Origin: Symbiodinium sp. CCMP2592
Lineage: Eukaryota; Sar; Dinophyceae; Suessiales; Symbiodiniaceae
Assembly: GCA_905221615.1 (NCBI GenBank)
Contig: CAJNDT010006021.1
Coordinates: 1-64,000, forward strand
DNA length: 64,000 bases
Direction: 5' to 3'
Under the pieces are notes generated by a model that did no database searches, was not told where the DNA came from, and saw only the letters and a list, made by a program, of their open reading frames with translations. This document shows positions 28,110 to 47,500 of the stretch, piece by piece (within the stretch, counting starts at the first letter, position 1; every line of letters starts with the position of its first letter). The translations under genes and the position numbers were made by a program.

Positions 28110-28305
28110 CACGTGTGGCATGTCTGGATACACTCAGCGAGTCTGAGGATGAGATTCGGCCGCCTGTCCCGAAGAGGCAGCGAACAGGACCCAGCACTCA
28201 GCCAGCATCTGCCAGCGGAGATCGTGTTCTGCACCCTATCCTCAAGAGGCAGAGAACTGTTGAATCTGAAGCCGGCAGCGAGCCGGCATCTGGCAGCGGA
28301 GATCG
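28106..28305 (+). CDS. First exon (left part) of the DUF7869-like gene, cut by the 16.2-kb insertion
   Basis: ATG 28106 starts MPRVACLDTLSESEDE and runs into Ser/Glu/Lys repeat units built on 'KRQRTVESEAGSE'. The last unit (28235-28305) is identical over 71 bases to 44539-44609, where the same repeat array resumes and leads into the rest of the gene. Codons after 28305 (LYHPVIRLF...) belong to the inserted DNA. The nucleus-like basic/acidic composition suggests a nuclear protein. The gene is presumably disrupted here unless the insertion is spliced out. Confidence 0.55.
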
Positions 28306-28352
28306 CCTATACCACCCGGTCATACGTTTATTTCTGCGTGCTTGGATTTTCG
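28306..28352 (+). repeat. Left terminal inverted repeat of the 16.2-kb insertion
   Basis: Starts cctataccaccc and contains catacgtttatttctgcgtg. Pairs with 44482-44529 in reverse complement. Confidence 0.6.
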
Positions 28353-28606
28353 TGCGTGACCCCACAAGATAGGAGAAAAGATGCGGGATGTTTTTTTTCG
28401 TTCGTGATGCTTTGGGGGCTTCGATAAGTATAGATCTGGGATCATGCTGCTGATCGTCGTGCGAAAACTAAGGGATCATCAACGAACATTATAATAACCT
28501 TCTGGAATGACTTGATCATACTATTGCTAGCTATTCGAAGCTCTACCTGCTGCCGATCGTGCACCCGCACAAGCTCCCGACGATTTTTTATGCCGGGCAC
28601 TTAGCA

Positions 28607-31370
28607 TCAGCCGAACTCCCGGGTCCATTGCCGTTGATACAGCAATAGCGATAGCCTAATGGTGCGGATTGCGCATGTAGCATTTGAGCAGCGACGAGAT
28701 ATGCGCGACACTTTGCCGATGAAGTCCTCGTCTTGCCAGCAGTTCATACCTTCTATGTTCTTCGGGCTTCTCGATGTAGTGTGTGTCAGACTTGCTACAG
28801 GGGCCATACTTAAACAAAGCAACACAAGCATCCTTATGGGTGTAAAGTAAATACAGCAGAAGCTTCAGCGCGTATTCCACACCAGCTCATTGCCACTCTG
28901 CACTTGCAGATCCAGATCACGCCTGTTATGTATGCACTTGACTTCTTCATAACACCTGTGACCATTAGAGGACCTGTAGAAAACAATGGAAAACGAGGCA
29001 GGAGCACTATGTGCAGCATCATGTGGACTTTAGGTCGTACCTTGAACAAAGCCCACTTTCGTTGGGATGTGTGGAATGCCAGAGCACCGGCTCCTTCCTA
29101 AGTTCAAGAAGTTTCAATGACTCAGTTCGGCTACAGGATTGGTGTTGTACATGAATCTAGAAGATTATACTGCATAAGGCGGAAGTGCACACATGCACCA
29201 TCCGTGCTCGGCAATCTTTGCAGCGGCTGAAGCAGGGATCCACATAGCATGGTCATATAACCCTTTGAAGTAGGCATTTGTATGCACGAAGGTCCACTGG
29301 AGGAGGTTGTAAAGCTCTCTGTCTCGCGCAGCCTTTAGCCGATCCACTATGACATAAATTAAGTATATATGCTGTACAAGTCGACACTAAATAAAGCTGG
29401 AGCTGTACTGGCGTACTAAGCTGTAGGCTTTTTGAGAGTCGGTTCTCGATCTAGGCGGTTTCAAAGGATTGCTAACTATATAAAACTTACCAAATATTTT
29501 AATGCATCGATCGAGAATCAACCCTCATGGATCCTCCTGTTTCACATAGCAGGTCCTCCAACCATTCACAAAGCAATATCGTGTCTGAGCCTTTCCCAGC
29601 ACCTTTGGGGTAGTTCTGCAGCCTGAGCTCCCATATACCGGATGACATAACCGTGTATATCTACTAACAGAACTTACATAGATTGATCGGATCGATGAGT
29701 TAATAGTCCATCCTAGCCTTGCAAGCTCTGGCAACCAAACCCCTAAACCCGTTGAATGATATGAGAGCCCCCAATTCCTATCCAACTCAGGCGGAGGACG
29801 TCTTCATCTTGAATTTCAGCAACGTGAACTGGTCGAGGCTCGTAGATTTGTGGCTTCTTCTACACCATGCAATAAAGGAGTCGTATAGCCAATTCAGTCT
29901 GTCCTGTGTGGACCGCCCTGGACAAATCTTGAGTTGCGACAACAACACGATAGCAGACGAAGCCATTCCGGAACCCAGTCCCTGGATAGCGAATGTGTGA
30001 GCCGGGTCCGTGCGGAGTCGCCACGGATTGTCTGCTCCAGGTATTGATCGTAACGGGCTGACGAAGTCATCTTTCCAGGGCTCATCAGCTGGGTCATCCC
30101 TTGTCCAAGAACGAATATCAGATGCAGCTGTACAATTGTACCAATCCTGCCATACCCAACCAATTCTCTAATTATATAACCCTACCTAACCAGTACGTAA
30201 CATGTTGTTTGGCGCCCGACCTCCTGCTCACACATGTGGCAAATCCTGGTAGAGGAAAATCCGGTAAGCAGATTGAAAGCCTTTCGAAGCCACACCCAGT
30301 CTCCCTTGCACCCGAGCCATGCCATGCGGAAGTGGTATTTCTGCCCGTCATGTTCAACCTCAACAGAAGGCTAAGTTTATAATTACGGTTTCGAGCCATA
30401 TCTATCCGCAAAACCACTAGCTCATTTGAGAAATTAATCACTTGACATAAAAGGCACATCCAAACCATTCCAGAAGAGAGAACTACAATCATCTGCCAGG
30501 TGCTGCAGCAAGTTGTAGATTGTTTTGTCACCATGGTAGCAACGAGCAGGTATCGCCGTGTACAGTAGGCGCGAACAAAAGCTGTGCCTTTCAACAAGTA
30601 TATATAGGTACTAATCTGATCTACACTACCCCATATAGGTTAGTATTCTATACAAACCACAAAAAACAGTTTGCTACCATTGTGGACAAGTGACCCACTT
30701 TCATTCAACTTATGCTTGCCGAAATGCGAGAACAAGCCCTGAAAGCTCAAAACCATGACAGGCATCTTCGTCCGACCACGTCCTTCATCGCCGTGAAGGA
30801 AGTACGGCAGTGTGCACTTGCGGTCCAGGCTTTCTGTAAATATGGGATGCGAGGGGTCTACACACTCGTACAAGTCCCAAAACTCTTGAAGGTCCCGCTG
30901 CCACGAATGAACTTGGGATATATGATGTCCCTGCAATAGCCTGGGTTGTTTTCTCTTATATGAGCACCCAATTCCAAAATAATTTATATAATTATATACT
31001 TAGCTAATATGCTTGTGAGACCATTTAGAAGTCATCGGATGATGTTTTAAGACTAGGGTGATTGGGGTCTCTCGGGCAGCACTGGGCCTTGCAAGCTTGC
31101 ATGATTAGGATTCGGCAGGATGCAAAATCGTCAAAGCGTGCAAAGACAGCCGAGCAGCATTTGTCCGCCTTGTTCCAAAGCGAAGCGTGCCCAACTTGAA
31201 AGTTTCAGGGTGGGCCATTGTATGTTCTTCAGCTTCCGTGTTCGGGTATGACGGATCTTGATCATTGCATTTGAGATCTGAATGGGAAGTGTGAAGTTGG
31301 GCTTGGAGAGCAGGCGGTGGAGGTTTCGGCAGGTGTTGCTATCATCAGCACTTGCACATTTGCCCAACCT
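28607..31370 (-). CDS. Multi-exon protein with LHGDEGRGR and RPKVH motifs, candidate transposase of the insertion
   Basis: Exon-like minus-strand segments, in order of translation: about 31370-31120 (basic, ends WARFALEQGGQMLLG), 30936-30650 (HPIFTESLDRK, LHGDEGRGRTKMPVMV at about 30790), 30580-30450 (AIPARCYHGDKTIYNLLQHL), 29341-29195 (RLKAARDRELYNLLQW, KIAEHGW), 29046-28960 (RVRPKVHMMLHI) and 28775-28607 (CWQDEDFIGKVSRISRRC). I recall this motif series from a large, unnamed, highly repeated dinoflagellate protein family. Conserved acidic residues in GDEGRGR and DEDF, and the position inside a terminal-inverted-repeat element, make a transposase role possible but unproven. Exon edges are approximate; further exons between 30.4 and 29.4 kb are likely. 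Confidence 0.5.
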
Positions 31371-31619
31371 TTGCAAAGTCGGATCGCGTAGCCCTGCAAT
31401 GCGAGGGAGTTGGAAGGAAACTAGGAAATGTATATGAATTTACTGAAAGTAACAACAACATGAGCAAGCCTCGTCGTTCCAACTTCCCATGGGCTTTCTT
31501 GGCTAAACGACACGTGCGGGCCGCGGAGTCAGCCTCACTCGCATGGATTGGGGAGCATCTGCAACAGACTTACTAAGCCATATACTTTTGGCAAACTCCA
31601 TCGTACCGGTTGAGGCTTT

Positions 31620-31705
31620 CAAGATCCCCCTAAACCCTATAAGCCCTAAACCCTATTTATAAACCCTAAACCCTAAACCCTATAAACCCTAAACCCTAAA
31701 CCTGG
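31620..31705. repeat. Interstitial telomere-type (CCCTAAA)n tract
   Basis: Several ccctaaa units mixed with ccctata variants. TTTAGGG is the telomere repeat of plants and dinoflagellates. The tract is inside the 16.2-kb insertion. Confidence 0.75.
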
Positions 31706-32392
31706 CTAGAGGGGCCCGGGAATCTCGGAGGTTCTTTCAATACGGATGTCCATCTAAGCAGCCAAGAGCCTCGCGGATTATAGGTTATGGGATGATCGGG
31801 TTCTAGCTCTTTCTAAGCTGTATAGGAACATGAATGAAACCATCGCTATAGAGCACGTATAGGCCTATTGATCAATGTTAGTTACTTAATTAAATCCCCA
31901 ACGATTCTATAGCCCACGTCACAACACTCCTGGGTTAGGGTACAGAAGTATGGCGCGTGACCCCGGAAGATAGCCCCATCAGGAGCTCATCGAGGAAACC
32001 GTCGTCCTGGTTGTCATCCGGGTCATCAGGACCTGGACAGTGGGGGTTTCTTTAGGGAGTACCATATTCGGCTTAATTGAGGGCCCCACTTATGTCAAAG
32101 CACTCCACATCAAGACCTGCGAAAGGGTAGGCCGAGCATCTGCAATGAGTCGTACGTTTGTCGAAGCCACGAAGTCTTGTCATGAAATGCAACACAGCCA
32201 ACAGCACACAGATTGGAGCGACTACATGTTGAACGTTTTCAGACTGCAGCTCACACTCCTTTCACAGGATTGGCCCATGCGGTAAAAACTGCATGTGCTG
32301 CACGTGCAACTGACAAATTTGATCATGATCTCCAATGCAAATCAGATACACCGTCATTGCTCGATCATTCCAGTTCTGGATGGTCGTGCCAC

Positions 32393-33171
32393 TCAACTAG
32401 TCCTCCGGCGCTTCTGCGCAGGAGCCTTTGCTGCTGCAGCTTTCGGGCCCGCTTTGGCCTTAGCCCCACTCTTCGGCCGGGCTTTGGACTTCGGCTTTGC
32501 AGGGGTGCTGCCAGCACCAGACTTGCCCCCCACACTCCTGAGATAGCAAGGGGTTGCGGGGATTATGTCTAGGTTAGGCACTTGCAAAGTTTGGTTTTGC
32601 ATGGGTTATTGCGACGTCAAAAAAATCTACGGGGTTATAATATTAAGGAGGGCTGGCAAATTGTGGCTTGTATACAAAGCTACATGAATTCGTCTAGGGC
32701 AGAGCAAGCCTGGCGGCAGCACAAACTTCTCTAGGTGGAGTATATATAGATTGCAGCAAAAGTTCCTCGATCGCACAACATAATTGTTGAGAGCAAGGTC
32801 GGCTTTGGTGCACCGGATGTAAATTCCCAGGGATTCCTTCTTCAGCCTAGGACTCTCAGGTTTCCAAACATCATGCACATATGAACTAAACCTTCGCAAA
32901 CTCAAGCACTAACTGCCTTGCCTGGCAATATTGGCCTCATTGTCGGTGGTTGCAGCATCGGCCTGCACCTCGGTCAACTTCTTGTAGCACTCGTTCATCT
33001 CCACCAAGCAGGAGGTCAAATTCTTGCTCAGCCTAGGCTAGGAGGGGCATCACCCGAGGTCACATTATGCATCTAGAGAAGCACACCAGCCGTGTAGTTT
33101 TTGAGAAGCTGCTCAGTTGCTTTCGCCACTCCCTTGCCCGACATCTTCTCCTGGCTAGACTGTGTACTCAT
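32393..33171 (-). CDS. Small multi-exon gene with Lys/Ala-rich C-terminus
   Basis: ATG at 33171 (minus) opens MSTQSSQEKMSGKGVAKATE (exon to about 33085). Further exons lie at about 33030-32920 (SKNLTSCLVEMNECYKKLTE, probably helical), about 32885-32760 (YVHDVWKPESPRLKKESLG) and 32537-32393. The last starts after the acceptor ctatctcag and ends in a Lys/Ala/Pro-rich tail (KPKSKARPKSGAKAKAG, KRRRTS stop), a likely nuclear localisation signal. Introns are short (about 50-220 bases). No family was recognised. It lies in the same orientation as its neighbours within the insertion. Confidence 0.5.
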
Positions 33172-33313
33172 CACGGTTGATAGATAAGCTATCAGAATAT
33201 ACTTGCAGCCCTACTTAAGCTATACAGGGTTATATGGTTAAGGGAAGTTTGGGGTGGTTAAAGGTTAGCTATCTATAGCTAGGTACCCTGCGCATATATG
33301 GTGGCCTATCTGT

Positions 33314-33435
33314 GCATAGACATTTCCTGATCCACTCGAATCCCTTCCGAACGTATATAATATATTAATACAATATATATATATATATATATATACGTTC
33401 GGAAGGGATTCGAGTGGATCAGGAAATGTCTATGC
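33314..33435. repeat. Perfect 46-base inverted repeat with AT spacer (hairpin, MITE-like)
   Basis: Arms 33314-33359 and 33390-33435 are exact reverse complements (left arm starts gcatagacatttcctgatcc), separated by about 30 bases of TA-rich sequence. No clear target duplication is seen at the edges. It could be a small non-autonomous element or a structured RNA. Confidence 0.9.
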
Positions 33436-33955
33436 TCTATTATTCTATGTCATTCAAGGGTTTTTCGAGGCTTTGTGGGGACGGAAGTTCCGGGCTATAT
33501 ATTAGGAGTGAAGCTGTTTGGGTTTCTGGATTCGTGTAAGCTACAGGGTCCTAGAGGGTCGTAGAGGGTTTGAAGTTCGGTTTTGTTATGGTGCAGGTAC
33601 TGCATGGGACTTGATAGGTTTGTGGTGGTTTCCCACAACCCCCAAAACTTTCCAAACCCACACACAATCATATCATGACAGACACGAGCCACTTGCAAGC
33701 CCCGAAGCCAAAGACTCATCGGGCCCCATATCCCCGGCCCCATACCTTTCAGATTCTCAAAAAGCCAGGGATGTCTCAGACCCATGCAAAAGCCTTGCCC
33801 CACTTGGGTGATGCAGCGGTCGACCCCTCTAACGACCGGGTTTATATAGGTTAGGCTTATATAACATATAGGTTAGGGTATATAGGGTTTACAGGGGATC
33901 GGCATACAAACCCAAAGTTTGATTAACCCATGCACAAGCCCGTATCATCTAGAAT

Positions 33956-34343
33956 CTAGACATGAGCAAGCTCCTTCACCGACTCGGCCAAGTCAATCTT
34001 CTTGCCCAGCACACAGATGTAGGAGGAGAGAAGCCCAAGCGGGGAGGCGTTCTGCTGCAGGCTGGGGAAGCACATCCTCGGCTAGGTTGTTTTGAGTAGT
34101 CACAAATCATTGAGAGCTCTGGCTGTCGAGAGTCTTAAACGAAGCCCCAGCTTGAGCAGTGACCACGGCGTCACTAGCCGGCTCTGCACTGCGTCCTGCC
34201 GTCGGCTTGCCCAGGTCTTCGTTCTTCGCGTCGAGCAGTGCGCAGTCCGGGTCCTGGGCAGATCATATCCACACTGAAGAAGGGAAGAGAGACAGAGAGA
34301 GACAGAGCCAGAGAGAGAGAGAGAGAGACAGAGAGACAGAGCC

Positions 34344-34401
<58 letters not shown>

Positions 34402-34431
34402 GTGCTGTTTGAATACGCTCCTTCCCCTTTC

Positions 34432-34471
<40 letters not shown>

Positions 34472-35987
34472 GGGAGAGAGACAGAGAGGAAGTGAGGGGC
34501 AAAGAGATAGTCGTGGTGGAATTGGGAACGTCTTTGACTTGCATGGCTAGGCACGTCCATGCTGAAGTTGCTGGAGAAGCCATGCAGTCCTTTGTCCTGA
34601 CTCTGTCGAGTTCGTCCATGTCCAGTCAAGCGGAATGTCCGCTTCCTCTTCACCATGGATCTCGGACTTGAAGCAGCGCCCATTCCGCCTGGCCCATTCG
34701 AAGGAATTGTCGGCCATTGTCCTGGTGCACATGAACGACATCGAAGGCAGCGTGCCGGGGTGCTTGCTAGAACCGTTGTACATTGTATACACGTAATACT
34801 CTAGTGCAGGAGGGGAGCTGGGTGTACTTCCTCACTTCCATGAGCCAGTGCTTCGTCACTGTCCCACCTGTCTCTGCCGACTTCTTTTTCTGCACGTGCC
34901 ACTTCTCCAGCACTCCCTCGATCTTGTCGAAAGTACCGTGGTCCAGCAGGAGCTTACGAAGCTGCTCACCTTGCGATGTGTCACGCTCTAGGTCCAAGTA
35001 GACTCATGTGGGTGACATAGGAAGTAGCTAGTGCACACTTTAAGCAATGGCTCGTCCGTCAGAGGTCTTTCCGAGCTCTAGCACGTTCGGTGTGCACTTG
35101 ACCTCGCCCTTCGCATTGGGCATGAAATGCCGACGAACCCTCAGTTCCGTCGGCTCTATCGATGGCTTCTGCATAGAAACTACAATCATGCATACTATAT
35201 GCTGCTACGATTTTTGACAAGTAGCTTCCAGTAGCCTTCGGGCTTGGGTGCAGCTAGCTTCTTCTGTGGGGTTGGTCGTCGACTGGAACCAAACAGCTGC
35301 TTCCGAACGTCAGGGCGGGAAGATGGGCCGGTGCTTGGGGGTGTGCGCTTCGGCTCGGAGTTTGGCATGACCGGGCTGTCCTCAATATCGATAGAACCAG
35401 TCATCTCCTTGGAGTTGAGGGGCTTGCGAGGGGTCGAGGAAACCTGTGTGGCCTCACATCCGGGCTTGCGAGCGGTCGGGGAAAGCTGCGTGGACTCACA
35501 TCCATCCGGCTGATCGTATTTCGAGGATTGCTGCAGCATACGTGTAGTATGAGATCTCGGCAAAGCGGTCGTGGCATTCCCCGGGGCAAACTGACCGGAA
35601 GAAGTAGCAACGGAAGGGGCGCCTGCCACCAAGAAACATATGCAGTATCTAAATACACACCATATACAGAACCCTAGAGGCCCTATATATGCTATGCAAA
35701 CATTTATAAAAACTACACACCTGGCTGAAGATCCGGGATCGGCCCGGGCTCGTCAATCAGCTGCTTCTGAAGAGCAGCCAGGTTTGCGGTTGCATTCTGA
35801 GGTCGAAGGAAAGCAAGTCAGATGGAAGTGGAGACATGCATCAATATCAGCAAACGACTAAATTCAACTAAAGAACTCTGATCTGCTCATCAAGCTCGTG
35901 TTCGGGGATCTCCGACATATTGGTCCACGACCGGGCTACCATCAGTACCCCGTCAGTCAGGGTGCCCAAAGAGGCCGAGGAGGCCAT
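33956..35987 (-). CDS. Multi-exon gene of unknown function ([10 protein letters not shown]...)
   Basis: ATG at 35987 (minus) opens [20 protein letters not shown] (exon to about 35870). Next come about 35796-35722 ([16 protein letters not shown], followed by a GTGTGT donor), 35610-35210 (after cttggtggcag; Ser/Thr/Pro-rich, [11 protein letters not shown] repeated as TPRKPLNS), 35172-35045 ([20 protein letters not shown]), 34998-34800 ([33 protein letters not shown]), about 34790-34660, about 34262-34110 ([15 protein letters not shown]) and a last exon at about 34080-33956 ([20 protein letters not shown], stop TAG). The GA/TC runs at 34.3-34.5 kb fall in an intron. I do not recognise the family. 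Charged, mostly soluble, no membrane segment. Confidence 0.5.
34281..34482. repeat. (GA)n / (TC)n microsatellite, interrupted
   Basis: Long GA runs broken by a 35-base non-repeat piece near 34400-34433. On the minus strand it is a pyrimidine tract inside an apparent intron. Confidence 0.9.
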
Positions 35988-36274
35988 GCTACAAAATCGC
36001 ACTGTAAATAGCATGCGATGAGAGCATGGATTGATTCACAGAATCGAGATCACGCAGGCACACACAGAGGCTCATGTCTAGACATGCACAGCACATGCAC
36101 AGAACAGCTCGCACCATAACTCCGGAGCCCACCCCGACCCTGCTGATGCTCGATGCTTGCCCTCCCCGGCCCAAGGCGATCGTGCTGTCATTTCCCCACA
36201 AACCTCCCTTTACCCCCAGGCTGTTAAGTATGGATTGCATGGGTCCAGCTAGCACCTCAGACAAGAGCACACGA

Positions 36275-36470
36275 AAGTAAAAAGCGCGCGTGGAACCCTA
36301 AAAGCGCGCGTGCCAAAACGGCCCACACACGGAAATTGAGATTGCGCGAGAGTTGCGGGGAATTGCGCGCGAGTTGCGGGAAATTGCGCGAGAGTTGCGC
36401 CCTAACTTTCCGGACCGGCACCTGCCCCAAACAAAAAGCGCGCGTGCAAACAAAAAGCGTGCGTGAAGCT
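36275..36470. repeat. Cluster of aaaagcgcgcgtg motifs around a 20-21-base tandem repeat
   Basis: aaaagcgcgcgtg occurs at about 36279, 36300 and 36434, with a variant (aaaagcgtgcgtg) at about 36452. Between them are three tandem units of attgcgcgMgagttgcgggga type (about 36338-36400). The MluI/BssHII-like CG content is unlike the surrounding AT-rich DNA. Confidence 0.8.
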
Positions 36471-36721
36471 TTCCCTGCTCATGGAACAACTGAAAAGAAT
36501 GCCCGGCTTCCCTCTTTCCTGCAGGCTGCCGAGCTCAGTCTGCATCTACGAACACAGACCAGTGGCTGGAGCCCTGTTGCACAACTGCTTGTCAGCCCAG
36601 TAGAGAATTGTACTCCTCCCTCAGGTCCCGGTAGCAGTTCACCTTTGTGCTTCCAGTCTAGTTGTGATAAGAACCCGGCACCATACGAGACAATTGTAAG
36701 ATTATGGAATAATAGCCCAAG

Positions 36722-36992
36722 ACACCTTGGCATCCAGTTCTGTATCAAAGCACTCGATTGTATCTTCCCAAGAAGGAGGTATCACGAGGTACTTGTTTCG
36801 TCTCAAGTAGAAGTACACTGACGGCAGCTGTGCATCTTCCCATAAATCCTTCATTGGTAGGGCTTTGAACAATTCCACATCCGGTAAGTCGGGATTGGCA
36901 GTGTTCTTGTTGCGTAGAGGAGCCAAGGCAGCCGAGGAGTCAGGCGTCTGGTCCGTAGCGAAAGCCTCGTAGATTTGCTTGACAAACTCCAT
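36722..36992 (-). CDS. Hypothetical protein exon (MEFVKQIYEAF...)
   Basis: ATG at 36992 (minus) followed by about 90 residues of good protein character (PDLPDVELFKALPMKDLW, SVYFYLRRNKYLVIPPSW). The exon probably ends near 36722; continuation on the minus strand to about 36480 is uncertain. No family was recognised. The frame immediately upstream (LLRVYP) is also open, so the start may be in an earlier exon. Confidence 0.4.
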
Positions 36993-37010
36993 GGGATACA
37001 CCCTCAGCAA

Positions 37011-38311
37011 ATGGCTTAGGGGGACTTAGGAGATCAGGGAGTCTGGGGCTTCATCAAATTAAGGATTCCGAGAGGGTGGTTTATAACTAGGGAATGTATG
37101 TGTATATATATATATATATATATATACTAAATAGCTAGGGTTCTGGCTATTGCCGATATACATATTTAAATAGATCTATATGGATATTGTATACATATAT
37201 ATCATCAGAGTTCAGGGCTCAGGGCTTCTGGGGCTTGCTGCATCTAGGGCATCTAGGGCTATGTACGTGTGGTGGAAGAAACTAAGGTTTTGGGGTGCTT
37301 GTTCTTTGTAGGGTTTCATGGGCTTGCTGGTGTTTCGGCTAACTCAAACCCAAGCCCATTATTAACCAGGATGACCGATGCTACCGGAATCAGCAGGGTT
37401 ATGGCATGTCCTGGAGGATTTCACGGAGTTGTTTTGGTGCGGCCTAGAGCCATAAGCCAAGCCTGTTATGAGAATATGTGGTTTGCACACAATGCACATG
37501 GGCTTGATAGGGATTTGCAGGGTTCATATGGGGACTAAGTGACTAAGACTAGCTAGGTTTCAACGGATTGCGCCACTATTTCAGAACTGGCCTGGAGTCT
37601 GGTGGAGTCAGTCGAAACGACACAAGCACATCGAAGCGGTGAAGGAGTTTAATGACTGCACAGAGTACAGGGCGTTCAACGCGGCACGACCCCGGTCGAC
37701 CAGGCGATCGTCGGAGCCACTGAACCCGGACGCGACCGAAGTCCTACAGCAATCAATGGTGGGAAGACACCCGTGTGGTTATAAGGCGAAACCACGGACC
37801 CAGAAGCCACCGCCTACCAAGCTTGGCACTGGTGAATTCTATAGAACTAGTAGGCTTGGGGTATTACGGGCTTCCAGTACTATCCTCTTTGCGCAGAACA
37901 GCTGGAGCTATCGAGGAGTTAAAGTAGCTTCGTAGCGGCAACACCAGCAGGAATAGGAGAAGTATATAGCAGTTGATTCAAAGTACTATAGTACATGTTG
38001 TACATGTATAGTATTTTATAGACCAGTAGCCACAACTATTGACTCCCTCAGACCACCGCAAAGGTACCCCGAAACTGCATAAAGTCTGGACCCCAGCGTT
38101 GCCCACTGAGTTATAGAGGGCTTTTCGGGTTTGTAGGGATAGCTAGGGATTCAGGGCTTGTAGGACATATGGGGTTGTAGATAGGTTAAATTTTAAAATG
38201 CAACTCAACAATGCATGCCTGGCAACCCGGTATCCTTCAGGCTGCTCGTTCCGGCGAACTTCTCGACACCCTCGGAGTCCTTCCACCGTCCTTTGGCAGA
38301 GAGGGGAGAGG
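37011..38311. other. AT-rich non-coding stretch
   Basis: Contains a (TA)n run at about 37108-37125 and many short 'agggctt' type repeats; no supported gene. Confidence 0.5.
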
Positions 38312-38596
38312 TTATCCTATGTCATCCTCACAAACCCCAACTATGTGTGCAGCTAAAGATCGAGTAGTGCGGATTTTGTTCCTTGATTTTTTGAGGTTTT
38401 TCTTGAGCACACCACGGTCCAGGGTCTTGACATTGGGTGAGTTGGAAAAGATCTTCGTCCGCTTTGGAGAGGAGCTACCCCAATGCATCAGCCAGAAGGC
38501 TTGGCCGTATACCTTAGTTGGGTCGAAGTGGTTTGCATACTTTTGGGTAATGCTAGATATAACCAAGCTGCATAAAGTACTGAATTGCAGAGCCAT
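38312..38596 (-). CDS. Hypothetical protein exon (YANHFDPTKVYGQAF...)
   Basis: A minus-strand frame with strong protein character: KYANHFDPTKVYGQAFWL, SSSPKRTKIFSNSPNVKTLD, then basic residues. It resembles a block I recall from repeated dinoflagellate proteins of unknown function. It probably precedes other exons downstream on the minus strand. Edges are uncertain. Confidence 0.4.
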   Translation of the reverse strand: MALQFSTLCSLVISSITQKYANHFDPTKVYGQAFWLMHWGSSSPKRTKIFSNSPNVKTLDRGVLKKNLKKSRNKIRTTRSLAAHIVGVCEDDIG

Positions 38597-40170
38597 TCAA
38601 AGCGATGGTGCTTCTGGATGAGCGAACAGAACGGGTGTTCCAATACCCATATGGTGTGCATAGCCGTCATCACTAATATTGCAAGAACGACCCTTAGTTG
38701 AGCATTCAAGCACATTGTGCCCATGATGCAAGTACGATGCACACGCACACACACACACATATACTTGTAGCTAGCGTCCGGCTGATCATCTTATTGGCTG
38801 ACGACACACTTGCGAAGCCTTCCTGACCCTGCGCATTGATGAAGGATCTCATACTTGTTCCTCTATTCGGCACACCCCAGGAGGAACACACCGGCCCCAT
38901 CAGGTTCACAGCCATCTTCTTCTCGCAGGTAATGCACCATAACACAAGCCTCAGACTATGACTCTACAAGCCGCCAGAGCATCCCTACCAAGGTTTGACC
39001 AAGCTACGCAAAACCGGCATCGGAGAGAAAATCCATGGAGGCACTCCGACTAATCTCGATGGTTGCGACTCTCTTTCCCATGGATTTCCTGGGTAGCAGG
39101 TAGGGAACACTCCTGAACCGTATATGCCCGAAACCCTACTGCAGTATGGAGCTTTGGGAACAGACCCGAAACGATAGTTTCAAGTATGCGCGTAGGCTCC
39201 AAAGCTTGCTGGCATTGCCCACCCCGGAAAACAGGTCCAGAAAATCAAAGGCTTTGGCCCGTGGTAGGTTCGTCGACCAGAGTAGCAGCAGCATCACAGC
39301 TATGAGTACCTGGGCAAGTACCAGTTGAGGGAGGTTGGGGCTTATATAGGTGTAGGGTGGATATGGCTAAGCTGGTTATCAATAGCATTCCTGATGAACA
39401 TACATGGGATAGATCAAACATCATCAAAGAAGCCTTCGGAGCTCCAACATGTATTAGCCGCACAAGCAAAGAGGAATCTGGCAGGTTGCCACAGTCCATG
39501 GCCAGAACAGACTTTGGTCTTGTGGTATGCAGTTGTTATATGGATGGCTGCAGGCGAAATTGGGGGTTTAGGGGGTTTAGGGGTGTTAGGGGTTGAAGGG
39601 TTTAGGGCTTAGGGGTTTCGAGGATTTAGAAGGGTTTATATAGGGTCTTAAGGCTTTTAGGGCTTTGTAGGGCTTCCATAGTGTTCATATGCATGTAGAG
39701 GATTTGATGTCATGGCAGCACTCTGAAGCCACTATACAACACTGCCGACATAGCACATCTCACACATGGCTTGCAGAGTGAATGCTGAAGCACATGAGAA
39801 AGGGTCGGGCAGAGCCTTGCGCCTCAGCACGGCGAGCCACAGCCATTGATCACCTGTCGCAGTTCGGAGGGCGGAGGGCAGTATATAATTCTTCAAAAGT
39901 ATACTATGCTGGCAGTGCTAGATCGACAAGACGACTCTCTAGAAATCTTTTATTCTGGGACTGTAGCAAGTATACATGTACTCCCCACTGACAGGCCTGC
40001 GCGGCGAAGCTCCCCGCAACGGCAGCCACTTCTACCTGACGATCAATCAGAGGCCCAGAGATTATTGGGGGTACAGGTAGGATGGGCCTTGACAGGGCAA
40101 TGCTCAGGCTGAGGAACATAATGGCCCGGTAGTCCACGGTCCAGAGATCCTGCCCAGAATGCATAGTGAG
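38597..40170. other. No supported gene; degenerate telomere-type tract at about 39555-39640
   Basis: Short frames only. The stretch 39555-39640 is rich in gggttta and ggggttt variants. An (AC)n run lies at about 38740-38760. Confidence 0.4.
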
Positions 40171-40496
40171 CAAAAATATTGTAGTTTTTAACTTGTGGTT
40201 TATATGGGCTTTGGAGGGGATCTACTGGTATTATATGACGGGTTTTCTGGTTCTCGATTCAGGATGCCAGTCCTTGTCGCCACAGGGCACAGGAAGCTTG
40301 CCCACCACAGCCCATGACAGACCTGGCAAGGATAGGGTAGTGGGATCGTGATAATTAATCTAATTTGGGAGGGTGCCCCAAGCGCTGCACAGCACTCCAT
40401 TGGTCCATGCATGTAGAGATACGGAGATTTTGCACCGATCGCACTGAGCCGTCGTGACGGTTTTGGCTCGATCACTGAGGCTTCTGCCTTCATTCG
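40171..40496 (-). CDS. Possible exons of a minus-strand gene
   Basis: The minus strand reads MKAEASVIEPKPSRRLSAIG and YLYMHGPMECCAALG at about 40496-40370, then PCQVCHGLWWASFLCP at about 40340-40270. A further hydrophobic segment (AIMFLSLSIALSRPIL) follows near 40110. These pieces look protein-like but no domain or firm splice sites were seen. Confidence 0.25.
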
Positions 40497-40819
40497 GGTT
40501 GGCAGCCAGCATTACCCCCAGCTAGCAGCACTCCCAAAATGTAGGAAATCTACCGCATGGCATAAGTCAGCGGTACATCTTCAAAAGCGCAACCAGCTTC
40601 CACTAGTGCAAGTCAGATTCACTCCTGCTCAGCATATGCCTTGGATTGCAATCACATAAGCACACAAGGTGCAGTGATAGTAGCCATAAAGAAGCTCACA
40701 CAATCATGCATGCCTAGCACACAGCCACACTCGCTCGAGAGAGAGAGAGGGAGAAAAGAAGAACAGTAGGGGTCACCTAGATCGATCTCTCTCACTCATG
40801 TTCCCTATCTCTCTCATTC

Positions 40820-40820
40820 A

Positions 40821-40887
<67 letters not shown>
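40820..40887. repeat. (CT)n / (GA)n microsatellite
   Basis: A near-perfect CT run directly at the 3' end of the minus-strand gene below. The 'LERERER' tail read from it is not real protein. Confidence 0.95.
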
Positions 40888-40889
40888 AA

Positions 40890-43644
40890 CTAAACCAAGT
40901 GACCTTCTTTGCCAGAGCGATTGCTTCCTCTTTCGAAAGTCCCTGCTTCAAAGCAAGTGTCTTTGCTTTGTGATAGGCACAACTCTTTCGGCTCTTCATA
41001 GCACCATCCTGGGGAACCTCATTCTTTTTCCCACGCTTGCGAACTGCATGAGGCTTGGGTGGGCTAGGGGCCGCCTTTGCTGCACGATCCTTTGCCGCAC
41101 GAGTCTTCGCGCTGGCCGCCTTTGCTTTCGCTTTCGCTTTCGCTTTTGCTTTGGGTGCTTTTTTTGCCGGATTTCGCCTCAGGTGAGTAAAACTTCGTGT
41201 CTTGGCTGTTCTCGACTTCCGGTGTCTTGCGCTTGTTGCCTGTGTTCTTCTTCGGGGTCTCAGCTTTGGCCTTGGCTTTGGGCTCGGTTTCGCTTTTTCT
41301 GGGGCGGCCTGGTCGCCTCTTCGGCTCGGCTGGATCCTTTGTAGCTTTCTTGGGCGGTGTCTTGGCTTTGCTGGTCTCGGCTGTCTCGTCATCTGCCTCC
41401 TTTTTTTTGCCCTTCTTCTTCTTGGCTGCCGCTTTCTGGTCACCTGGTGACACAACACCAGCTGTGCTTAGGAGGGCAGGTCTTTCCATCTCTCTTCCAT
41501 CATCTCGCTCGTCAGTGCAACGATGATCACCTCCATTATCGCTGCCCTGAACAGCATCCGGGGCTTGGGACTCCACTCCTTTGACATCGGAGCCACCTTC
41601 AGACTCCACTGCAGCAGCAAACCCTGGACAACGAACCGCATCTTCTGCCTCAGCCTCTCGCTTGACACCAGGCTCCATCTTGATTGGATGATCTAGAGGC
41701 TCTTTCTTTATCGGCACACGAAGCTCTACTGAAGGCTTGGCTGGTGGCTTTCCCAAAGGCTTCTGCTGTGGCTCTCCCAAAGGCTTCTGCGGTGGCTCCA
41801 TCCAAGGCTTCTGCCGTGGCTCTTCCAAAGGCTTCTGCGGTGGCTCTTCCAAAGGCTTCTGCGGTGGCTCTACCAAAGGCTTCTCAGGCGGCTCTACCAA
41901 AGGCTTCTGCGGTGGCTCTACCGAAGGCTTCTGGGGCGGCTCTTGCAAAGGCTTCTGCGGCGGCTCTTCCAAAGGCTTCTGCGGTGGCTCTACCAAAGGC
42001 TTCTGCGGTGGCTCTACCAAAGGCTTCTGCGGTGGCTCTACCAAAGGCTTCTGGGGCGGCTCTTCCAAAGGCTTCTGGGGCGGCTCTTCCAAAGGCTTCT
42101 GGGGCGGCTCTTGCAAAGGCTTCTGGGGCGGAGGCTGCTGCGGTGCCTTTTGCGAAGGCTCCTGCTTGATAACCGGTTCTTTCTTGATGATCTTGCTGGG
42201 CTCCCACTCAACCGTTTGAGTCAGGAGTCGCTTCGGACCCAATCTCGCCGGGCACTTGTCATCAAACACTCGAGCAGCAAGAGCTGCACGCTCCTTGGCC
42301 TCTATCTCTTTGCAGGCATTGGCTGCTGCATCATCCAACGAACATTGATCCAATACTTGCGTGTCTTGGGTCGTCACATTACCTCATGTTGCATGACACG
42401 AAACAAAGCCGAACTCGTGACACCAATTGCATGCTACACAACTCGATCCCACGAACTGCAAACAGGGTGCTAGGCTGCTTCTGTTGCTGCCGTTGCTGCT
42501 TTGCTGCTAGCAACTGCGATAGGCGCTGCTGCTCTTCATTCAATCGTTGTAAAAGGTCGCGCTTGCTTGGGGGTGCCAACTTCTGCGTGGACTCGGGCGA
42601 TGTACCCTGGCCTGGCACGTGCTTCGGGGTGACAATCGTAGACGGAGCCGATGGCGAGCTTCCTGGGAGCAGGCATGCATAGACCAATGTAGTTTATATA
42701 AGTTAACACTGCAGCTCATGCAAATTTAACGAACCACATAAATCATTGCAAAGCTTCTTGGAGAGGCTTTCTTCAAATCGGCAGGCTTCTCTGGGGAGGC
42801 TTGCGGGGGAGGGAACGGCGCGACTTCAAAGTCCGCTGGGTCACACTCCTCATCCTCAGTCCCTGCTTCCGATTCAACACATTCAGCGTAGCCAACCTGT
42901 CACCGACAAAGTCTGAATCAAAGATGCTTTCGAACTGAACGGCTCAAGTAAGTCGGACCTCTTCACATCCGGCCGACTCATCAAGGATCTCATTGGATCG
43001 CGGCTGCCGTCCTGGGTGTAGTGGCGGTAGGGAATTGTAGGAACATCGACTAAAACCACTCAACATGATTTACTCTTTTTTGCAGGTAAAGTACCAGGCG
43101 GAATCGGAATCCCCAAATGCACGTAGATCTTGCGAATGTTCTCTTCTTGTGGGCGGTGAGGGAGCTTGACAATCCTGTTGAACATAGAAATCAAGTTCCG
43201 AACTCGCCAGGCTTGGTTGCGACAAAAATTGCCTCGGTTATCACTCGTTCTCAGCACAACACAGACACATATATATGGCTAACACCCACAATCATTGATC
43301 TTCCTTGAAGCCATGTTACGACAAACAGGTTTCTTTCCCCGCTGTCTGCAGCGCTGAAAGAAATGATCGACTTCATCCTCGAGAGTGTCCACCGAAGGGC
43401 GTGCTCCTAGGTAGCCCATTGCCGCTGCTACTATGTTCCAATTGAAGTCCAAGTCCGGCCGTGTGAGTACGCCCGGTGCGACCACCAATCGTCCTCCAGC
43501 TCCCCGTTCTGATACACCCTCGAGCTTAAACCAATCGTAACTGAGGCCAGACTTTGGCAGCTCGCTGCTGCCCAAAGTCGAAGACGACATAGCTGAGCGA
43601 AAACGAATCTTGTGCATCCCCAAATTACACACTGCAACCTCCAA
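40890..43644 (-). CDS. Multi-exon Lys-rich protein with AT-hook and PPQKPL repeats, frame broken at an A7 run
   Basis: Minus-strand exons: about 43640-43290 (MSSSTLGSSELPKSG at 43590; DEVDHFFQRCRQRGKK), about 43250-43075 (RNQAWRVRNLISMFNRIVKL, IYVHLGIPIPPG), about 42898-42750 (acidic, ESEAGTEDEECDPADFE), 42664-42470 (after ctgctcccag; LLQRLNEEQQRLSQLLAAKQ, a coiled coil) and 42382-41165. The last has about 16 eight-residue PPQKPL[VE]E repeats, IKKEPL/KMEPG motifs and an AT-hook KRRPGRPRKS at about 41315, so DNA binding in the nucleus is likely. At 41162-41168 an A7 run (minus strand) separates this frame from a shifted one that continues sensibly: APKAKAKAKAKAKAASAK and SRKSCAYHKAKTLALKQG to about 40900. 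A one-base indel or slippage is therefore likely. The innermost gene at the right side of the 16.2-kb insertion. Confidence 0.55.
41752..42132. repeat. 24-base coding minisatellite, about 16 units
   Basis: Units of ccaaaggcttctgcggtggc plus four bases, mostly exactly 24 long. On the minus strand they encode the PPQKPLVE-type octapeptide of the AT-hook protein. Confidence 0.9.
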
Positions 43645-43784
43645 TTGCGATTATACTTCGTATCAGTCGACCGATCTATTCCAATCAACCCCATCCCTCT
43701 CTGCACACTGTGCGCAGAAGCCATGTAGCTGCAAAGAGATGTCATGCACGTCTAGCACAGACAATCGCACACACATAGGGAAAG

Positions 43785-43788
<4 letters not shown>

Positions 43789-43860
<72 letters not shown>
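43789..43860. repeat. (AG)36 microsatellite
   Basis: Uninterrupted AG repeat between the 5' end of the minus-strand AT-hook gene and the right end of the insertion. Confidence 0.95.
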
Positions 43861-43863
<3 letters not shown>

Positions 43864-44023
43864 CACAGGGAAACCCTAAACCAGCCGGGGACACCCCTGC
43901 GTAGAGCTCCCGGGAGCCCCTGGCAGGCGACCACGATCTACCCGGGCCCGATCTTCTTCATCTTCATCCTTATTTATTCCTACAGTATATACTATATATT
44001 ATAGACTCCTTCAATTCCATATG

Positions 44024-44024
<1 letters not shown>

Positions 44025-44063
<39 letters not shown>

Positions 44064-44153
44064 CCCATATATAATACGAGTGTATAAGTCGTATACACAG
44101 ATATACGTTATAGATCCATGTGTGCATGTGTGCATGTTCTATATGTACAGATG

Positions 44154-44185
<32 letters not shown>

Positions 44186-44206
44186 TGTATGTATGTATGT
44201 ATATGC
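44025..44206. repeat. (TA)n and (ATGT)n microsatellites
   Basis: TA run at about 44025-44062; ATGT units at about 44157-44206. No gene is supported between 43.65 kb and 44.53 kb. Confidence 0.9.
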
Positions 44207-44481
44207 ATGTATGTGTATCTGTGTGGGTCTATGTATATAACATGTATGCATATGTACAAATGAGAGGCACGGCATACACGTGTATGTATAGGATAGCATA
44301 CATACATGTATATGCATGAAAACCCGAAGATCGGCCCGGCCTCATCGCTGGGCAAGCCACGGCCAGCTCGATCAAGAACTTTCGAGATCATGCATGCATA
44401 CAAGGATTTCCGCGCGACACGTTTATTTCCATACGTGATCACTGACAACAACGATTTCTATACGTGCTTTCCCAAACATTG

Positions 44482-44529
44482 GGAAAATGCAAGACACACG
44501 GAAATAAACATGCGGTTGGGCGTTCCAGG
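44482..44529 (-). repeat. Right terminal inverted repeat of the 16.2-kb insertion
   Basis: Read inward from 44529 it starts cctggaacgccc and contains gcatgtttatttccgtgtg, aligning with the left end. A further acacgtttatttcc copy lies at about 44415 in the other orientation, as a subterminal repeat. Confidence 0.6.
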
Positions 44530-44531
44530 CG

Positions 44532-47500
44532 TGTTCAGCCTATCCTCAAGAGGCAGAGAACTGTTGAATCTGAAGCCGGCAGCGAGCCGGCATCTGGCAG
44601 CGGAGATCGTGTTCTGCAGCCTCTCCTCAAGAGGCAGGGAACTGTTGAATCTGAAGCCGGCAGTGAGGCGGCATCTGGCAGCGGAGATCGTGTTCTGCAG
44701 CCGGCCCTGAAACGGCAGAAAACCGGCAGCACAGACCGTGCTCTGACGGAGTTGACGTCAAGCGATGCAGAGACCGTCCAGCCGGCGCCAAAGGCAAGGT
44801 CCCAGAAGAAAGCCAAGCGGCGGCCAACGCTGCAGGAACGGCGTGACAAAATGGGCTCCGTCCAACGATTGGAGCGGATGCTTCACCAGCCCTGCCGCAA
44901 GCGACAGCATTGTGGCCTCAGGTGTTTCGCCGCTTTTCAGGAGCGCGAGGACTTTGAGCGCCTGGTGAAGTTTCGTTCCGACTGGGCTTCCATGCATAAG
45001 TTGGACCAAGATGAGGCCGTTCTGCGGCCGCATTAATTTTTATAATGACTTGAATCCGACGCGGTTATTCTCGCGTACTTCATTGCTATTTGACTGAATG
45101 ATTATTGATTGTCTCAGGTTTTCGAGTCCCTCCGCAGCATCTACAAGAAGACTGAGCATGGTAATCATGATGATGATGATGGCCGCGAGCTGGGGCCCGT
45201 GAAGTTCTTTTTCCTGGACAGGCGTGTTTGCAAAAGAGCTCGGACGAGGCTCTACGGACTGGGTGCCTTAGACAACTATATTTTTCGTACTGTCCGAGGT
45301 CTGTGTTAAACTGCACTGTAGGTTTTGATGCTTGAGGCTTCATGCTGCATTTCTCATCTCCACCCCCAGCCTTGGCCTTTCAACAGTTTCCGGAATTCTA
45401 ATAATCCAAGGTGCGGCTCGCTTCACTGCACGATGCAGTAATGGCTGGGAAGAACAACGCCCCTGTCGACAAGCGATACATCAGCAAGCCGTTTTCATTG
45501 AAGAGTGAAACGAGGGAAATTCGAGCTGATGTTACAAGCTTCCTGCAGAAGCTCTACGAGTCCGTTGCGGAGACCATGCCGGACGTCCGGGACTCGACAC
45601 AAGATGAGGATGATCTGCCTTTGCTGTTGAGGGGCCATACCGAGTACGACCTTGCCGAGGACCCTTACACTACAGAGCTGAACAGGCAAACACAGCCTCA
45701 GCTGTCTGCTGCTGGTGCTGGCTTGGAAAAGGCCGGGAACAAGCGCTTTGGCCAGGCTAAGGTCAAGAAAACCGTGACGGCTTTGGCGGAGAGGACTGCG
45801 AAAGGCGAAGAGTGCTTCTTGCCTCCTGGCAAGATGGTCCATTACTGGGGGCAGTACAAGCTGCAAGCTGGGGTGCAGCCGCCGGCGTCTTTTGTGACGT
45901 TCTGGAGGGTGCCTCGGTTTCCATTCCAAGTAAGGTTGTCTCTAAATTTTGGTGACGCGTGGACTCCTGGTTGAAGTCTGGTGCGCAGTAAACATTTTGT
46001 GCAAGACGTGAAGATAAGTTGAACGTGGACTTACATCACGGGACTCACCTGAATCTGAATCTGAATCTGAATTTAATTTGCTGAAGGGCTTAGAAGCTCA
46101 TGCCAGGTGTGGCTGTCGCTCTTTCCTTTCATGAAGTTTCGTGCCTCCACTTCACACGCTGTATGCTCTGAATGCTTGCTACATCAAAGCCTTATTCAGT
46201 CATACAGCAGGCACATCGCCGCAAGATGCGCGCAACAACATCTCTTGGAAGCGCATTTGCGGTCCCAATATTTGGACCGGGTCCAATATATTGGCAAAGC
46301 CGGGCGAGCTCGCGGCTGAATACAGAGGAGCTCGTCGTGATACAGGACGGGATGGATCAATCCAAATTTGCATGCCCGCGTCATCCTTTCTTGGCGGCGA
46401 AGTGCTTCGAGACTCTGACATCAGCCAGGCCTCGTTTGCATATAGTAGGCGTGCTGGCCCATGGCCATCTCATGGCCCTAGCACTCACGGAGCCCACGGT
46501 TCCAAAAGACAGCAGTACTCAGCTCGAACTGCTGTCACACGTGCTAACCCGCGTGCAAGCAAGCGGCTGCAAGCTCCAGAACATGCGGCTCACCGTGCAA
46601 TGCGATAATTGTTGTCGCGAATTAAAGAATAATCAGACGTTACGATGGATGGCATCCTTGGTAAGCAGACGGATCCTACGGGCCGCGAGGCTTTGCAATT
46701 TGCGAAGCGGCCACAGCCATGAGGATATTGACCAAGCTTTTGGAAGTTGCGCAGCGTACCTTGTGAAGAAAGCCGCCAAAGCAGAAAGTTCGGACAGCTT
46801 CCAGCAGCACCTCGCGAACTTCCTTGAGGAGCTCCCGCGCCCGCACGAGAAAGAGCGGGCAGTGGTGCGCATCAGCCGAGTCCGTGACTGGCTTCTGGGC
46901 TGCATGTGGTGTCGTTGTCGTTGAGTTGATGCTTTGTTTGAATCCTAAACGAGAGCTGACCAGGCTTGTCCTGTCCAGGTATTGGTCATCATAAATTGAA
47001 GGATCTGACTTGTTCAACACTCTTCAGCTCGCGTCTGAGGAAGTCTTTCATGGCCGCTGCAGTGCCGGTTTCCTTGAAAGGAATAGGGGGCCCCGGTGCT
47101 CCCCACGAGTTTCTCCTCGAGCGTCGCGTGAACACAGGAGCTGAGCAGTCTCCTAACTTCACAAGACTTTGACGTCCGACCCAACCAGTCTGTCAGTCAG
47201 TGTCAGACGAACCTCACACACAGACAGTCTTGACCATTCATACATCGAATCGGTAGCAGCAGGCAACGCCGCAGTGCAGTAGTTCCGTGTTCCAATGTCT
47301 CCTCTCCTTCAGTCCTCACAGTGACAGAAGGACTGGCCGATGATCAGATCCAGGATCGGTTTTGGTCCCAGCCGAAGCATCCGGATGACGTCATTCTTCA
47401 GTGCCGTGACATGTATTTATTATTGTTGAACAAGTGTAACAGTTTCTGCTGCTTGGAAAAACATCCCGAAAACCGAGCAAGGTCGCAGTCCCTCGCTCCC

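What the first reader, a model, noticed from the sequence alone, without database searches (positions are those of the whole stretch)
28306..44529. A 16.2-kb insertion with CCT-starting inverted ends and a CG target duplication, carrying several antisense intron-rich genes
Seen: the 81-base coding repeat of a plus-strand gene stops at 28305 and resumes at 44530; the interrupted site reads CG on both sides where intact units have a single CG; both ends start CCT and share GTTTATTTCYGYGTG at the same offset without gaps; all recognised genes inside are on the minus strand. Known: CACTA/EnSpm-type elements make 2-3-base duplications. Inferred: this is a very large DNA transposon, possibly of a lineage not described, that carries ordinary-looking spliced genes.
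Basis: partly seen in the sequence, partly recalled or inferred. Interest (0 to 1): 0.9.

Follow-up and report, generated by a model that had tools for sequence, protein, structure and literature searches.

The report
Large dinoflagellate DNA transposon family
A 16-kilobase jumping DNA element, which resembles the CACTA kind of cut-and-paste transposon but has its own ends, has landed inside a gene of a dinoflagellate alga; its spliced genes look like its own machinery rather than borrowed host genes.

Summary
Window 28306-44529 is a 16,224-bp DNA transposon inserted in a coding 81-bp repeat, with a CG target duplication. The same genome has five uninterrupted paralogues of the site and eight further loci with paired inverted ends of this type (15.4-22.1 kb). 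Counting this one, 8 of 9 have matching 2-bp duplications (TA x4, CG, AA, CT, TT), and all nine enclose the same exon in the same orientation 1.4-1.7 kb from the left end.

The internal "genes" do not look like cargo: conserved blocks run through the element in the two other copies compared along the middle. The last exons form a putative DDE transposase with HGDEG, KGDW, C(2)C, H(3)H and DED[FYW][IV]G, the layout published for the CACTA-Mirage-Chapaev-Transib/RAG1 (CMCT) clade. No Pfam family passes its cut-off, no PDB sequence matches, and the termini are CCT..AGG, not the CA..TG usual in that clade. I call it a distinct lineage that works like CMCT elements; membership is unproven.

Upstream lies a domain with cytosine-methyltransferase-like motifs, linked to the transposase at 34 of 96 exon matches; profile comparison did not confirm that homology.

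The parts
28304..28305 (.). left copy of the 2-bp target duplication (CG)
   Evidence: empty sites
28306..28351 (+). left terminal inverted repeat, CCTATACCACCCGGTCATACGTTTATTTCTGCGTG.. (the 3' side of the gene)
   Evidence: 12 left ends of this kind
28326..28407 (+). left subterminal motifs GTTTATTTCTGCGTG, TTTTCGTGCGTGA (28347-28359), TTTTCGTTCGTGA (28395-28407)
28607..28744 (-). last transposase exon: CWQDEDFIGKVSRISRR (putative catalytic E) to the stop codon
   Evidence: (DED[FYW][IV]G in 29 of the 29 loci where the piece was found, of 30)
28871..28915 (-). short transposase exon piece LDLQVQSGNELVWNT (tentative)
29005..29097 (-). transposase exon with KVHMMLHI (H(3)H motif)
29201..29332 (-). 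transposase exon (AARDRELYNLLQWTF..KIAEHG)
29535..29621 (-). transposase exon (LQNYPKGAGKGSDTILLC..)
   Evidence: P0005
29799..30146 (-). transposase exon with RTDPAHTFAIQG; the exon used to count copies
   Evidence: 96 matches in the genome, 150 of 191 candidates scored
30221..30364 (-). transposase exon with KGDWVWLRKAF..CHMC (putative catalytic D2 and C(2)C, 20 residues apart)
30455..30574 (-). transposase exon SRLLYTAIPARCYHGDKTIYNLLQHLADDCSSLFWNGLDV
   Evidence: (P0011, P0015)
30697..30930 (-). transposase exon with LHGDEGRGR (putative catalytic D1)
31134..31439 (-). exon just upstream of the catalytic core (NTCRNLHRLLSKPNF..)
32396..35257 (-). middle exons incl. 34979-34571 ([32 protein letters not shown]..), 34081-33959, 33034-32921 (NECYKKLTEVQADA) and Lys/Ala-rich 32524-32396
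   Evidence: (P0015); function unknown
36708..37013 (-). conserved exon VYPMEFVKQIYEAFATDQ..
   Evidence: 70-72% identity in two other elements; no Pfam family over its cut-off
38357..39270 (-). methyltransferase-like domain in several exons: DLFSGVGNASKLW, GPVCSSWG, VLEHPFCSL, SSSPKRTKIFSNSP
   Evidence: homology to DNMT not confirmed
40889..42383 (-). Pro/Gln/Lys-rich exon region with 24-bp tandem repeat (EEPPQKPL) and KSRKSCAYHKAKTLALKQGLSKEEAIALAKKV
   Evidence: conserved parts seen in one other element, L062
43072..43626 (-). first conserved exons of the unit near the right end
   Evidence: conserved in right-end loci of five other elements (L041, L045, L050, L052, L058)
44421..44509 (.). 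right subterminal motifs GTTTATTTCCATACG (44421 +), ATTTCYATACGTG (44425 and 44454 +), GTTTATTTCCGTGTG (44495-44509 -)
44484..44529 (-). right terminal inverted repeat, CCTGGAACGCCCAACCGCATGTTTATTTCCGTGTG.. read inward
44530..44531 (.). right copy of the 2-bp target duplication (CG)

Best explanation
28306-44529 is a 16,224-bp cut-and-paste DNA transposon of a Symbiodinium-like dinoflagellate. It belongs to a genome-wide family with CCT..AGG termini, imperfect inverted repeats, subterminal TTTC..CGTG-type repeats and a 2-bp (most often TA) target duplication. Its intron-rich minus-strand unit encodes a putative DDE transposase whose motif order (D, D, C(2)C, H(3)H, E) is that of the CACTA-Mirage-Chapaev-Transib/RAG1 clade, plus linked conserved domains, one of them methyltransferase-like. 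Inferred mechanism: the spliced transposase binds the subterminal repeats, cuts at the terminal CCT/AGG ends with the DDE active site, and joins them to a target across a 2-bp stagger. Here the target was a CG in the 81-bp coding repeat of a multicopy DUF7869 gene. Shown: ends, duplications, copies, empty sites, motif conservation. Inferred: catalysis, binding, and that one transcript spans the unit.
For: Left end shared from base 1 with 4 other loci. A 29-mer end pattern found 25 sites against 1 for the reversed control; 22 of 25 have the transposase exon inward within 25 kb, 12 left ends at 1.26-1.71 kb and 10 right ends at 13.6-20.3 kb. 9 elements have both ends and 8 of 9 have matching 2-bp duplications. 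C2602 and C2635 are 98.3% identical over the 3.8 kb compared and the identity stops at the right end. 5 uninterrupted paralogues of the insertion site. Exon-sized homologues in the protein collection and one spliced Symbiodinium sp. CCMP2592 protein with the same exon order. Of 30 loci, counting those where the piece was found: HGDEG 28 of 28, KGDW and CxxC 29 of 29, HxxxH 28 of 29, DED[FYW][IV]G 29 of 29; several of the 30 are near-identical pairs, so these are not independent. All are invariant in the 11 diverse rows I chose. Clade definition: passages of PMC12730594. One of 11 rows hits PF02992 Transposase_21 in register, E 0.011, below cut-off.
Against: No Pfam family above its cut-off (on the plus strand only 2 of 3 frames to 42305 were scanned). 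The PF02992 hit is weak: in the same scan an unrelated family, Crust_neurohorm, scored better (E 0.00084, 2 of 11 rows). No PDB match (5 chance-level hits at E 0.55 or more in 31); no PF02992 match in this genome (105, but no control rang). Termini are not CA..TG. The DDE assignment rests on motif order; no structure could be predicted. 16 of 111 conserved bins score best on the plus strand. No empty allele for the one joined flank answered. C4446 has non-matching flanks and a stop in the counted exon. No transcript or transposition data.
Confidence: 0.8

Rival explanations
1. An ordinary CACTA/EnSpm element, i.e. a member of the known superfamily that merely diverged in this host.
For: D, D, C(2)C, H(3)H, E layout; 2-bp duplications; subterminal repeats; weak in-register PF02992 hit for 1 of 11 rows.
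Against: Termini CCT..AGG rather than CA..TG/CACTA (67, 108); no row over the PF02992 cut-off; no PF02992 match in the genome (nothing rang in the 14 controls either, so that search says little about absence); TA in 4 of 8 matched duplications.
Confidence: 0.25
2. A composite: a smaller transposon (transposase 28.6-31.4 kb) that captured unrelated host genes between its ends.
For: The unit is very large; 70 of 104 matches of the MTase-like exon have no linked transposase match; some conserved stretches score better on the plus strand.
Against: The same order and orientation recurs: 34 linked same-strand upstream, 0 same-strand downstream, 2 opposite strand within 25 kb. Conserved blocks fill the element in the two other copies compared along the middle.
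Confidence: 0.1
3. The copy in the window is an inactive relic or an assembly artefact rather than a functional element.
For: No near-identical sister of this copy among the loci scored (best exon match 81%); ends only 28/50 alike; 3 nt missing beside the right junction.
Against: The counted exon is open; an apparent frameshift that I first suspected near 29,190 proved to be most likely an intron start shared by other copies. Eight other loci with the same structure argue against an artefact.
Confidence: 0.15

Closest known systems
CMCT clade (EnSpm/CACTA, Mirage, Chapaev, Transib, Plavaka, ESTA, Lanisha; RAG1), as defined in PMC12730594
   Same: [quoted passage not shown] duplication within the 2- to 5-bp range; subterminal repeats as in CACTA (last point recalled)
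   Different: Termini CCT..AGG instead of the usual CA..TG; transposase not recognised by PF02992 above cut-off; very intron-rich 15-22 kb unit with an upstream methyltransferase-like domain; dinoflagellate host
ESTA (EnSpm-like with TA duplications, fungi; PMC12730594)
   Same: C(2)C and H(3-4)H transposase, TA duplication, and pairing of a transposase with a DNA-modification enzyme (TET/JBP) in the published families
Symbiodinium DNMT retrotransposons (SymbioLINE-Dnmt, SymbioDIRS-Dnmt3; PMC5890265)
   Same: Mobile elements of Symbiodinium that encode a cytosine methyltransferase (here only putative)
   Different: Those are retrotransposons with intronless, PF00145-recognisable DNMTs; this is a DNA transposon with an exon-rich, PF00145-negative domain

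Membership tests
CMCT clade (CACTA-Mirage-Chapaev-Transib/RAG1) | three acidic catalytic residues (DDE/DDD) | tested here: inconclusive
   HGD(E)G, KGD(W), DED invariant in 11 of 11 chosen rows and in every locus where the piece was found; that these are the catalytic residues is inferred, no fold available
CMCT clade (CACTA-Mirage-Chapaev-Transib/RAG1) | C(2)C between second D and last E | tested here: met
   CxxC after the D of KGDW (20 residues in A6) in 29 of the 29 loci where the piece was found, of 30 (59); 11 of 11 rows
CMCT clade (CACTA-Mirage-Chapaev-Transib/RAG1) | H(3-4)H between second D and last E | tested here: met
   HxxxH in 28 of the 29 loci where the piece was found; L020 has R for the first H
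CMCT clade (CACTA-Mirage-Chapaev-Transib/RAG1) | 2- to 5-bp target duplication | tested here: met
   2 bp in 8 of 9 elements; C4446 does not match
CMCT clade (CACTA-Mirage-Chapaev-Transib/RAG1) | 5'-CA..TG-3' termini ('in most cases', PMC12730594) | tested here: not met
   CCT..AGG in all 9 elements with both ends
CMCT clade (CACTA-Mirage-Chapaev-Transib/RAG1) | placement in a transposase phylogeny | not tested
   no reference transposase sequences of the clade were at hand
CACTA/EnSpm | Transposase_21 (PF02992) above curated cut-off | tested here: not met
   1 of 11 rows hits at E 0.011, 15.4 bits against cut-off 28.6
DNA cytosine-5 methyltransferase (internal domain) | PF00145 match | tested here: not met
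   0 of 12 rows at E <= 1 (91); none of the 124 PF00145 matches in the genome lies on the window's contig C5159, but only 123 of 1338 candidates were scored
DNA cytosine-5 methyltransferase (internal domain) | motifs I, IV (PC), VI (ENV), VIII (QxRxR) in order (recalled) | tested here: inconclusive
   DLF[SA]G, GPxC, [LV]E[HQ]P, PKRT in order in most rows, C and E invariant in 12 of 12; profile-profile against 9 DNMTs of this genome: probability 0.4%, E 0.14, aligning only motif IV

The most novel reading that the evidence does not exclude
A new dinoflagellate lineage of giant, intron-rich DNA transposons in which a RAG1/CACTA-type DDE transposase and a divergent cytosine-methyltransferase-like domain are encoded by one gene. 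The element would then carry its own means to methylate DNA, the reverse of the TET/JBP-carrying fungal DNA transposons and a DNA-transposon counterpart of the Symbiodinium DNMT retrotransposons.
Probability: 0.3. Interest if true: 0.8.

Novelty: new variant of a known kind. Interest (0 to 1): 0.62.

Why it matters
Dinoflagellate genomes are large and rich in poorly classified repeats (background knowledge). This gives one large family a structure (ends, duplication, transposase motifs), so that it can be sought and annotated across Symbiodiniaceae. It would extend the RAG1/CACTA-type motif layout to a dinoflagellate lineage with different termini. If the methyltransferase-like domain is real, it ties DNA transposons to the unusual methylome of Symbiodinium, in which most of the genome is methylated at CG (PMC5890265, passages).

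Tried and rejected
Frameshift in the transposase near 29,190: rejected; the other copies printed also leave the frame there, so it is most likely an intron start. My early exon piece 29152-29196 (ACVHFRLMQYNLLDS) was therefore wrong. It was part of the queries and of the e6 query, and was dropped.

Combined 528-residue query against the protein collection: nothing; single- and multi-exon queries worked, so the collection seems to hold mainly exon-sized ORFs of this family. Viral and prokaryote contig scans: 10, 134 and 70 pattern stretches, no relative. PF02992 in the genome: none. Empty allele for C2602: only the occupied site and short repeats. The left end of C3335 was not recognised in the fetched stretch. 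Pfam on other conserved exons: nothing above cut-off; small matches below cut-off to unrelated families (DUF3915, Hex_IIIa, Crust_neurohorm and others) I take as chance. Locus L024 lacked several pieces (it gave only a spurious fragment for the E piece) and was left out of the rows.

Papers. Searches (listings only; two returned none); passages of PMC8101967, PMC4079192, PMC12730594, PMC11453091, PMC8045281, PMC5890265. In these I saw no description of this family; Repbase and most subscription journals were not available. That predicted proteins of this kind are common in Symbiodinium databases is my recollection.
Full report
What is in the sequence. The plus-strand gene's 81-bp coding repeat breaks after ..GGAGATCG at 28305 and resumes with CGTGTTCAGCC at 44530. 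The two ends start CCT and share GTTTATTTCYGYGTG at the same offset. They agree at 28 of 50 positions; 6 of 200,000 random 50-base pairs from the window did as well or better. GTTTATTTC occurs three times in the whole window on both strands, each time within about 110 bp of an end of the element. Further copies of a TTTC..CGTG motif lie beside both ends, an arrangement like the subterminal transposase-binding repeats of CACTA elements (recalled). The unit that resumes at 44530 lacks three bases (CTG) that the intact units have; I cannot explain this.

The organism. The window lies in a 1.098-Gb, 5383-contig assembly. The only named relative of the coding exons is a protein of Symbiodinium sp. 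CCMP2592 (P0015), identical over the 38 residues of one exon to locus L007 of this genome. I take the host to be a Symbiodinium.

Copies and ends. The first 300 bp of the element match four other loci, each starting at base 1 of the element, with different flanks. A degenerate 29-base terminus pattern, which I wrote from the window's two ends and these left ends, gives 25 sites with up to two mismatches against 1 for the reversed control. For 22 of these 25 a transposase exon lies inward within 25 kb: 12 left ends at 1.26-1.71 kb and 10 right ends at 13.6-20.3 kb. Three sites (C1335, C2302, C2549) have none. Seven elements show both ends by pattern: C5159 (the window, 16.2 kb), C4956 (15.5), C4778 (16.0), C5171 (16.9), C160 twice (22.1 and 15.4) and C4446 (20.9). 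Two more, C2602 (15.5) and C2635 (15.5), have a left end by pattern and a right end by alignment. Flanking dinucleotides match in 8 of 9: CG (window), TA (C4778, C5171, C160 twice), AA (C4956), TT (C2602), CT (C2635). C4446 does not match, and its exon carries a stop. Under a flat 1/16 expectation, 8 or more of 9 has a probability of 2e-9; AT-rich flanks make this optimistic. C2602 and C2635 are 98.3% identical over the 3.8 kb compared and the identity stops at the right end, which I read as recent movement.

Empty sites. Five other contigs carry the host segment at 97% identity, uninterrupted and with a single CG. Their sequence matches the window on both sides of the element at about 90-95%. 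This confirms the two breakpoints and the 2-bp duplication. The host gene is thus itself multicopy; its downstream part matches DUF7869. No empty allele was found for C2602.

What the element encodes. ORF pieces on the minus strand can be strung together. The exon at 29799-30146 has 5 homologues at 68-92% identity in the protein collection and 96 matches in this genome (150 of 191 candidates scored). The 92% one (P0001) has no equal among the genome's own matches, where the next best is 81%, so it probably comes from another assembly; for the others I did not determine this. A second probe returned 10 proteins, including P0015, whose exon order is the same, and P0013/P0014 for the upstream domain. 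Comparison with other elements shows conserved blocks from 43626 to 28610. Between about 31.6 and 43 kb only two other elements (C4778, C4956) were compared. Of 111 hundred-base bins with a conserved frame (of 163 in the element), 95 score best on the minus strand and 16 on the plus strand, mainly at 36.2-36.7, 37.5-37.8 and 42.5-42.7 kb and in the right terminus. A small plus-strand gene is therefore not excluded, but I see no sign of foreign cargo. Whether the minus-strand unit is one gene or several is not settled.

The transposase. Among the 30 loci fetched, where the piece was found, HGDEGRG is present in 28 of 28, KGDW followed by CxxC in 29 of 29, HxxxH in 28 of 29, and DED[FYW][IV]G in 29 of 29. 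Several loci are near-identical pairs, so these are not independent. In 11 diverse rows that I chose, down to 41% identity to the window, all are invariant and D to C is 20 residues in the window's row. [quoted passage not shown] Against: no Pfam family above its cut-off, no PDB sequence by profile and only chance-level hits by single sequence (E 0.55 or more), no PF02992 match in the genome (where no control rang), and CCT..AGG termini. One row of 11 hits Transposase_21 (PF02992) at E 0.011 over residues 76-157 against profile positions 76-154, i.e. in register but under the cut-off; in the same scan an unrelated family (Crust_neurohorm) reached E 0.00084 in 2 of 11 rows, so little weight should be put on it.

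The methyltransferase-like domain. Exons between 39270 and 38357 read DLFSGVGNASKLW, GPVCSSWG, VLEHPFCSL and SSSPKRTKIFSNSP. Across 12 rows the G-P-x-C cysteine and the E of [LV]E[HQ]P are invariant. The exon at 38357-38512 has 104 matches in the genome (150 of 313 candidates scored). At 34 of the 96 transposase matches it lies upstream on the same strand at 6.3-24.7 kb; within 25 kb none lies downstream on the same strand, and 2 pairs are on opposite strands. The order resembles motifs I, IV, VI and VIII of cytosine-5 methyltransferases (recalled), but PF00145 does not match, PDB does not match, and profile-profile comparison with nine DNMTs of this genome gives 0.4% probability, aligning only motif IV. 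I keep it as a hypothesis.

Verdict. A real, multicopy DNA transposon family with a CMCT-like motif layout and its own termini. It works like a CACTA-type element; membership of that superfamily is not shown. I rate it a new variant of a known kind.

Noticed in passing
window 46433-46906 (+), and contigs C1802, C1352, C871, C535, C13 (loci L081-L085): The interrupted host gene has a DUF7869 domain (PF25273, E 2.3e-25) and at least five paralogues that are about 99% or more identical to one another over most of 3 kb; it may itself belong to a mobile element.
   Followed up: partly
window 33314-33435: Inverted repeat (93% over 125 bp against its own complement) with an AT-rich loop, between conserved exons of the element; looks like a MITE or introner.
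   Followed up: no
window 44530-44545: The repeat unit next to the right junction lacks 3 nt (CTG) that the intact units seen have; could be unit variation or a footprint.
   Followed up: partly
window 36228-36821 and 37543-37935 (+): Plus-strand reading frames that are conserved in two other elements and score better there than the minus strand; coding or not is unknown.
   Followed up: no
G000 contig C160 62336-84427 and 89920-105279: Two copies of the element in inverted orientation only 5.5 kb apart.
   Followed up: no
window 41723-42125: 24-bp tandem repeat, about 17 copies, in frame, encoding an EEPPQKPL-type repeat.
   Followed up: no
window 31628-31702: Telomere-like CCCTAAA repeats inside the element.
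   Followed up: no
window 50363-50453 and 50545-50720: Inverted pair of 25-bp tandem repeats (CGGAGTGTCGGATTTCGGCCGCGGC) downstream of the insertion.
   Followed up: no
whole genome G000: 124 PF00145 (DNA methylase) matches with only 123 of 1338 candidates scored, in line with the DNMT expansions published for Symbiodinium.
   Followed up: no
whole genome G000: 70 of 104 matches of the methyltransferase-like exon have no transposase match linked to them; other, more divergent elements may carry the same domain.
   Followed up: no
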